From NCBI RefSeq assembly GCF_947496995.1, contig NZ_CANMFD010000001.1, positions 368,692 through 432,691 of the forward strand: 64,000 nt of DNA, written 5' to 3'. The first letter of the stretch is position 1; every line of letters starts with the position of its first letter. The DNA comes from an uncultured Roseibium sp. (GTDB lineage: Bacteria > Pseudomonadota > Alphaproteobacteria > Rhizobiales > Stappiaceae). The notes below the pieces were generated by a model that was not told where the DNA came from, did no database searches, and saw only the letters and a program-made list of their open reading frames with translations. The position numbers were made by a program, and so were the translations under genes. Shown here in pieces: positions 55,953 to 60,280 of the stretch.

Positions 55953-56351
55953 ATGTCGAACGCCGATCTGCGGGGCAACCGCCCGCTGTCGCCCCATCTT
56001 CAGATTTATAAACCCATTCTGACGATGGTTATGTCGATCCTGCACCGCATCACGGGCGCGGCGCTTTATTTCGGCACGATTCTTCTGGCCTGGTGGCTGA
56101 TCGCCGCCGCGGCCGGCCCGTCCCACTTCGATTTCGTCAACGATATATACGGCTCCATCCTGGGCCGGCTGGTCCTGTTCGGCTTCACCTGGGCACTGGT
56201 GCATCACATGCTCGGCGGCCTCCGTCACCTGATCTGGGCCATGGGCTCCGGATTCGGCAAGGAAGCCCGGGAATGGATGGCCAGGGCCACCATCATCGGT
56301 TCCGTTTCCCTGACCCTGGTCCTCTGGGTCATCGGTTACCTGGTTCGTTAA
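55953..56351 (+). CDS. sdhC: succinate dehydrogenase cytochrome b556 subunit
   Basis: SdhC is one of two membrane anchors of complex II and holds heme b and part of the quinone site. The 132-residue protein begins [32 protein letters not shown], the SdhC signature with the quinone-site Ser/Arg region, and has three helices. The likely heme ligand is a His in [25 protein letters not shown] precedes the ATG. sdhD follows after 10 bp. Confidence 0.96.
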
Positions 56352-58590: not shown

Positions 58591-59433
58591 TTGAGCGAGG
58601 CAGCAACACTTCTGGACACAAGAAGTCCGTTCGGCACCTATCCGGTCGAACGGATGGTCCGTGCTGCCTGGCGCCTGGCCGACCGGCATGAACTGTCCAA
58701 GGGGCTGCGCATCCGCATCCGCGCTCTGGTCGCACGGCTTTTCAGGGGGCCTTACGATCTGGAGGCGGACGGTCTGAAATTCCGCATCTATCCGGGCGAG
58801 AATTACGACGACCGCAAGATCCTGTCCAAGGGGCGCTTGCCGGAACGCGAAGAACACAGGCTGATCGCGCCTCATCTGGGCGAGGGCAAGGTGTTCGTCG
58901 ATGTCGGCGCCAATATCGGCTCTTACGCGATCTTCGCCGCCGGTCTCGGCGCGCAGGTGGTCGCGATAGAGGCCAATCCGCAGACGGCGGACAAACTGAC
59001 GTTCAATGTGCGGGCCAACGATCTGCTGGACAGTGTGACGGTCGTCCGCTCGGCCGTCGGCCCGCGCGACGACACGCTGCCCTTGTGGCAGGAGCCGAGC
59101 AATTGCGGCTTTGCCACCTTCGTCAAGGACCTGACCACCGGAGAGTGGGCGGGCGACTGGACGCCGACTTTCGTGAAAGTCCGGCCGCTGACAGCCCTGT
59201 CCGACGAACTGGGTCTGCGCAAGATCGACGTATTGAAAGTGGATGTGGAAGGGTTCGAGGACCGTGTGGTGCTTCCCTTCCTGCGGCACGTGGACAGGGA
59301 CCTCTGGCCCCGTGTGATCCTTCTTGAAACCAACTGCCGGCCCTACTGGACCGAGGATTGCCTGAGCGAACTGGCAAACCGGGGCTACCAGGTGACCGGC
59401 CGAACGAATGACAACATGGTCTTCGAGCTTTGA
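58591..59433 (+). CDS. FkbM family methyltransferase inside the sdh operon
   Basis: This 281-residue SAM-dependent methyltransferase is of the FkbM (Methyltransf_21) type. The AdoMet motif is [32 protein letters not shown], and the later motif is [13 protein letters not shown]; the family often methylates sugars or secondary metabolites. TTG 58591 is the likely start, with GGGAGGGGG just upstream and 13 bp after sdhA. The gap to sdhB is 64 bp. The tight spacing suggests co-transcription with sdh. The substrate is unknown, and nothing indicates a role in complex II beyond position. Confidence 0.85.
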
Positions 59434-59497
59434 TCTCGAGCCAGAAGACCAACCGGCCCGGACGCGAAACCAGGGCCCAACGCGGAGCAGTAACGAC

Positions 59498-60280
59498 ATG
59501 GTTCAGCTGACGCTTCCCCGGAACTCCCAGGTGACGGAAGGCAAGGTGTGGGACAAGCCGGAAGGCGCAACCAACCTGCGTGAGTACCGCATTTACCGCT
59601 GGAACCCGGACGACGGGCGCAACCCCCGGGTAGATACCTATTTCATCGACGCGGACGACTGCGGCCCCATGGTTCTGGACGGCCTGATCTTCATCAAGAA
59701 CAAGATCGACCCGACCCTGACGTTCCGCCGGTCCTGCCGGGAAGGCATCTGCGGGTCCTGCGCGATGAACATCGACGGCACCAACACCCTGGCCTGCACG
59801 AAGGGCATGGACGAGGTCGCCGCCGACGTGGTCAAGATCTACCCGCTGCCGCACATGCCGGTGGTGAAGGATCTCGTGCCGGACCTGACGCGCTTTTACG
59901 CCCAGCATCGCTCCATCGAGCCGTGGCTCCAGACCGTGTCGCCGCCGCCGGAAAAAGAGTGGCTTCAGTCGCACGAGGACCGGGTGAAGCTGGACGGTCT
60001 GTATGAGTGCATCCTGTGTGCCTGCTGCTCGACGTCCTGCCCGTCCTACTGGTGGAACGGCGACCGCTATCTCGGCCCGGCAGTCCTGCTTCAGGCCTAC
60101 CGCTGGCTGATCGACAGCCGCGACGAGGCGACCGGCAAGCGCCTGGACGATCTGGAAGATCCGTTCCGCCTCTACCGCTGCCACACCATCATGAACTGCT
60201 CCCAGGCTTGCCCGAAGGGTCTCAACCCTGCCAAGGCAATCGCCGAGATCAAGAAGATGATGGTCGAACGCCGGGTCTGA
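59498..60280 (+). CDS. sdhB: succinate dehydrogenase iron-sulfur subunit
   Basis: SdhB carries the 2Fe-2S, 4Fe-4S and 3Fe-4S clusters that pass electrons from FAD to quinone. The 260-residue protein shows the ferredoxin-like cysteines in [25 protein letters not shown], then [16 protein letters not shown], and [24 protein letters not shown] 59498 has GGAG about 10 bp upstream; the track start adds 30 unrelated residues. A strong terminator ends the operon. Confidence 0.98.

What the first reader, a model, noticed from the sequence alone, without database searches (positions are those of the whole stretch)
58591..59433. FkbM methyltransferase gene inside the succinate dehydrogenase operon
sdhC-sdhD-sdhA and sdhB are usually contiguous. 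Here a SAM-dependent FkbM-type methyltransferase lies between sdhA and sdhB, 13 bp after sdhA, with a strong ribosome-binding site and TTG start, on the same transcript. It is an intact gene, not a remnant. It could methylate a quinone-, lipid- or sugar-type substrate co-regulated with respiration, or be a passenger tolerated because it preserves the operon.
Basis: partly seen in the sequence, partly recalled or inferred. Interest (0 to 1): 0.62.

Follow-up and report, generated by a model that had tools for sequence, protein, structure and literature searches.

The report
Conserved methyltransferase gene between sdhA and sdhB
Marine bacteria related to Roseibium carry an intact, evolutionarily conserved FkbM-type methyltransferase gene inside the operon for succinate dehydrogenase, which is a real and apparently unreported arrangement, but nothing shows that the enzyme acts on respiration.

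Summary
In this Roseibium-like genome the order is sdhC-sdhD-sdhA-fkbM-sdhB. The gene (58591-59433, TTG start) is intact, lies 13 bp after sdhA and 64 bp before sdhB, and scores above the FkbM family cut-offs.

It is not strain-specific. It sits between sdhA and sdhB in 43 of 45 genus genomes and 68 of 87 family genomes, and in four other families of the order. These genes form one clade with its own motif (R82-L83), track SdhA and SdhB distances, and are under purifying selection. In one genus where sdhA and sdhB are separated, the gene stays beside sdhB. A second FkbM clade has independently reached sdh in two more families.

Function is not shown. Whole lineages lost the gene (14 of 16 Pseudovibrio) with sdh intact. 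No SDH residue clearly follows its presence, UbiG and UbiE are encoded elsewhere, and the junction also carries unrelated inserts. I favour a small-molecule (sugar or lipid) O-methyltransferase that uses the sdh operon for expression, over an SDH- or quinone-modifying enzyme.

A hairpin leader before sdhB, kept with varying stem sequences in most of the family, probably insulates sdhB translation.

The parts
55953..56351 (+). sdhC (cytochrome b556 subunit)
   Evidence: TIGR02970 128 bits
56362..56745 (+). sdhD (membrane anchor)
   Evidence: TIGR02968 88 bits
56751..58577 (+). sdhA (flavoprotein)
   Evidence: TIGR01816 931 bits
58579..58584 (+). Shine-Dalgarno-like GGGAGG of the methyltransferase gene
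   Evidence: sequence; most Roseibium orthologues have a purine-rich stretch there
58591..59433 (+). FkbM-type SAM-dependent methyltransferase, 280 aa, TTG start
   Evidence: PF05050 47.6 bits, TIGR01444 81.7 bits; AlphaFold model mean pLDDT 89
58834..58839 (+). codons of R82-L83, residues diagnostic of the sdh-linked clade
   Evidence: 98-100% in sdh-linked rows, 3-6% in unlinked homologues
59455..59477 (+). hairpin in the sdhB leader (GGCCC 59455-59459 pairs with GGGCC 59473-59477)
   Evidence: stem kept with different sequences across the family
59482..59488 (+). conserved GCGGAGC (sdhB ribosome-binding site)
   Evidence: present in 73 of 87 family genomes
59498..60280 (+). sdhB (iron-sulfur subunit)
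   Evidence: PRK05950 382 bits
60304..60331 (+). intrinsic-terminator-like hairpin plus T run after sdhB, the strongest such site around the operon

Best explanation
This is an old, vertically inherited, functional FkbM-type methyltransferase gene that became part of the sdh operon (sdhCDA-fkbM-sdhB) before the family diversified and is still under selection. Most likely it O-methylates a small polar substrate such as an envelope sugar or lipid head group, as characterised FkbM enzymes do. It is translated from its own ribosome-binding site on the sdh transcript, which gives steady aerobic expression, while a hairpin leader lets sdhB be translated independently of it. Shown here: gene order, intactness, conservation, single clade, purifying selection, leader hairpin. 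Inferred: co-transcription, enzyme activity, substrate class, role of the hairpin.
For: Same order in 68 of 87 family genomes and in families f13, f14, f18 and f45. One clade, support 95/80; single origin not rejected in the smaller tree, AU p 0.44. MT distances track SdhA (r 0.88) and SdhB (r 0.87) as well as those two track each other (0.86). Omega 0.06-0.25. Motif residues D104, G106, N108, G110, K216, D218, E220, G221, E223 invariant in all rows checked, E127 and E246 97% or more. Class I methyltransferase fold. No promoter-like site on the + strand around the gene; strongest terminator-like site after sdhB. No SDH residue strongly follows its presence. UbiG and UbiE encoded elsewhere.
Against: The substrate class rests on family chemistry from general knowledge, not on a test here. 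Within the family the MT-to-SDH distance correlation is weaker (0.68 and 0.52). In five families the gene is next to sdh, and where sdhA and sdhB are apart (f18 genus g65) it stays beside sdhB, which a mere expression platform does not predict. A second FkbM clade reached sdh independently.
Confidence: 0.5

Rival explanations
1. The enzyme modifies the succinate dehydrogenase complex itself (a side chain of SdhA, SdhB, SdhC or SdhD) and is a lineage-specific maturation or tuning factor.
For: Adjacency to sdh in five families with matching distances; stays beside sdhB where sdhA is elsewhere; a second FkbM clade independently at sdh in f20 and f21; clade-specific R82-L83 motif.
Against: Lost in five lineages of the family with sdh intact. 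No SDH column is conserved in MT+ genomes and absent from most MT- lineages except SdhB F49 and D19, in 3 of 5 lineages. Other unrelated genes sit at the same junction.
Confidence: 0.15
2. Selfish or neutral passenger: the sdhA-sdhB junction tolerates inserts, and this gene persists because removing it without harming sdhB is difficult.
For: Other inserts at the junction: CreD in Stappia, a small Cas2/VapD-like gene in one Roseibium, and by inspection of translations DUF3052-like, alpha/beta-hydrolase-like and sulfotransferase-like genes in other families. Absent from 19 of 87 family genomes.
Against: Purifying selection over the whole divergence, invariant motif residues, and clean loss in 12 Pseudovibrio leaving a 24-25 bp gap shows that removal is possible.
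Confidence: 0.25
3. The enzyme methylates a respiratory quinone or another electron carrier used by SDH.
For: Operon context; one distant homologue, outside the sdh-linked clade, lies next to genes read by eye as a cobalamin adenosyltransferase and etfBA (L169).
Against: UbiG (293 bits) and UbiE (265 bits) are present elsewhere; the protein belongs to FkbM, not to those families.
Confidence: 0.05

Closest known systems
FkbM family methyltransferases (TIGR01444 / PF05050)
   Same: Family score above cut-off, class I fold, conserved DxGANxG and K-x-D-x-E-G-x-E-D motifs.
   Different: Own N-terminal part, clade-specific R82-L83 motif, and location in the sdh operon; substrate unknown.
Canonical alphaproteobacterial sdhCDAB operon
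   Same: Same four subunits in the same order on one strand.
   Different: A methyltransferase gene between sdhA and sdhB, and a hairpin leader before sdhB.
UbiG and UbiE quinone methyltransferases
   Same: SAM-dependent class I enzymes; functional link to respiration.
   Different: Different families; both already encoded elsewhere in this genome.

Membership tests
FkbM methyltransferase family | score above curated cut-offs | tested here: met
   PF05050 47.6 against 22.7; TIGR01444 81.7 against 37.7
FkbM methyltransferase family | class I SAM-methyltransferase fold with glycine-rich motif | tested here: met
   AlphaFold pLDDT 89; best PDB matches are class I methyltransferases such as RumA and COMT; invariant D104, G106, N108, G110
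FkbM methyltransferase family | O-methylation of a hydroxyl substrate | not testable with these tools
   needs biochemistry
sdh operon | subunits and inserted gene on one strand, no internal promoter, terminator at the end | tested here: met
   coordinates; consensus scan only: no + strand promoter-like site, 12-pair terminator-like site after sdhB, one weak terminator-like + strand match inside sdhA
sdh operon | a single transcript across both junctions | not testable with these tools
   needs RT-PCR or RNA-seq
Quinone methyltransferase (UbiG or UbiE) | membership in TIGR01983 or TIGR01934 | tested here: not met
   not among its NCBIfam matches, nor among the genome matches of either model
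SDH subunit methyltransferase or maturation factor | target residue co-occurring with the enzyme | tested here: inconclusive
   no strong column; SdhB F49 and D19 weak

The most novel reading that the evidence does not exclude
The sdh-linked FkbM clade is a dedicated modifier of complex II or of a molecule bound to it, recruited to the sdh operon at least twice in Hyphomicrobiales.
Probability: 0.13. Interest if true: 0.7.

Novelty: new variant of a known kind. Interest (0 to 1): 0.42.

Why it matters
A core respiratory operon has carried an uncharacterised, selected enzyme between two subunits of one complex through the divergence of five bacterial families. If the enzyme acts on complex II or a bound lipid it would be a new layer of respiratory control. 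If not, it is a clear case of a core operon used as an expression platform, with a hairpin leader that probably protects the downstream subunit. Natural losses in Pseudovibrio make both readings testable.

Tried and rejected
Strain-specific insertion: rejected, 68 of 87 family genomes. Decay: rejected. Riboswitch in the sdhB leader: no Rfam family at gathering score and only a chance-level cobalamin match (E 2.9). Whole-family column alignment of the leader hairpin: not alignable, so stems were scored per sequence against shuffles. Specific fold neighbour in PDB: only generic class I methyltransferases. Plasmid origin: three distant plasmid hits, non-mobilizable; weak PADLOC mad2 and PHROG methyltransferase matches reflect the shared domain. 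Literature: no paper in the held library contains FkbM together with succinate dehydrogenase, sdhA and sdhB, and the lists returned by related queries show none on this arrangement; no paper was read in full. SDH residue covariation with gene presence: none convincing.

Full report
Observation. The gene order sdhC-sdhD-sdhA-MT-sdhB is as described and every boundary was checked. The methyltransferase (MT) is 280 aa with a TTG start 13 bp after the sdhA stop and a GGGAGG 6 nt before it, and it ends 64 bp before sdhB. Pfam and NCBIfam put it in the FkbM family above cut-off. Orthologues begin at or near the same place with GTG, TTG or ATG, so the longer ORF from 58531 is not the gene.

Distribution. 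Title lines of named records place the closest loci in Roseibium/Labrenzia. Orthologues lie between sdhA and sdhB throughout. Some genus genomes have two tandem MT genes. Outside the family it is between sdhA and sdhB in f13, f14, f18 and f45. In f18 genus g65 the gene is beside sdhB with, in the locus checked, a tyrosine recombinase gene upstream, and sdhA is elsewhere.

History. In the larger tree (89 rows) the sdh-linked genes of f1, f13, f14, f18 and f45 form one clade (95/80). In the first tree of 82 rows two unlinked rows fell inside it, but holding the linked rows together was not rejected (AU p 0.44). The clade has R82-L83 in 98-100% of rows against 3-6% of unlinked homologues. A second clade (99/94) holds the f20 genes (after sdhCDA, sdhB not adjacent), an f21 gene (between sdhA and sdhB), one f21 gene elsewhere, and f36 genes, one of them 2.7 kb downstream of sdhB with a kinase gene in between. 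A third group lies in several genomes near genes read as sfsA, map and radC (read from translations). So association with sdh arose at least twice, or is old and was often lost. Distances among the MT proteins track those of SdhA and SdhB (Mantel r 0.88 and 0.87).

Selection and fold. Pairwise omega against the window is 0.06-0.25 for the MT, 0.02-0.10 for sdhA, 0.02-0.07 for sdhB, and 0.03-0.20 for the neighbours cysZ and glutaminase: a gene constrained like an ordinary enzyme, less than SDH. The AlphaFold model (mean pLDDT 89) is a class I methyltransferase; Foldseek gives only generic relatives.

Function. FkbM enzymes with known function O-methylate sugars or polyketides (general knowledge). 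UbiG and UbiE are encoded elsewhere. I asked whether any SDH residue follows MT presence in the 87 genomes; nothing convincing did, the weak cases being SdhB F49 and D19. The gene is missing in five lineages, in 12 Pseudovibrio with only a 24-25 bp sdhA-sdhB gap, so it is dispensable to SDH. The junction also holds unrelated genes elsewhere. I therefore favour an independent substrate with the operon as expression platform, at moderate confidence, and keep an SDH-modifying role open.

sdhB leader. Directly upstream of sdhB, 73 of 87 family genomes have GCGGAGC, in nearly all preceded by a hairpin. Stem sequences differ (28 arm pairs among 61 distinct leaders), yet the mean stem score exceeds all 100 shuffle sets (15.0 against 8.3); individually 48% of leaders exceed their own 95th percentile. 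The leader is kept in seven MT-less genomes, which suggests that the gene was deleted from an MT-bearing ancestor there, and is missing in the 12 Pseudovibrio with direct sdhA-sdhB contact and in two Stappia-like genomes with a CreD gene before sdhB. An insulating or processing role is inference.

Limits. Co-transcription, activity and substrate need experiments.

Noticed in passing
window 59455-59488: Hairpin plus GCGGAGC leader of sdhB, structure kept with varying stems in most of 73 of 87 family genomes; no Rfam family.
   Followed up: partly
L144:4677-5033: Small Cas2/VapD-like gene (PF09827, 24.8 bits) inserted between sdhA and the methyltransferase gene in one Roseibium.
   Followed up: partly
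L136:3590-4996 and L125: CreD gene (PF06123, 446 bits in L136) between the methyltransferase gene and sdhB in Stappia-like genomes, where the hairpin leader is missing.
   Followed up: partly
L083-L085, L137-L140: Two tandem methyltransferase genes (47% and 65% identical to the window's) with overlapping ends inside the sdh operon.
   Followed up: partly
L145-L158 against L192-L195: SdhA identity to the window is bimodal across the order (about 70% or 79-87%) while SdhB stays about 73-86%, suggesting replacement of sdhA in part of the order.
   Followed up: no
L194, L203, L215: DUF3052-like and other small genes in the sdhA-sdhB gap of other families, so the junction is a recurrent insertion point (identified from translations only).
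   Followed up: no
L091:6001-6844: Frameshift in the methyltransferase gene of a Breoghania metagenome assembly; decay or assembly error.
   Followed up: no
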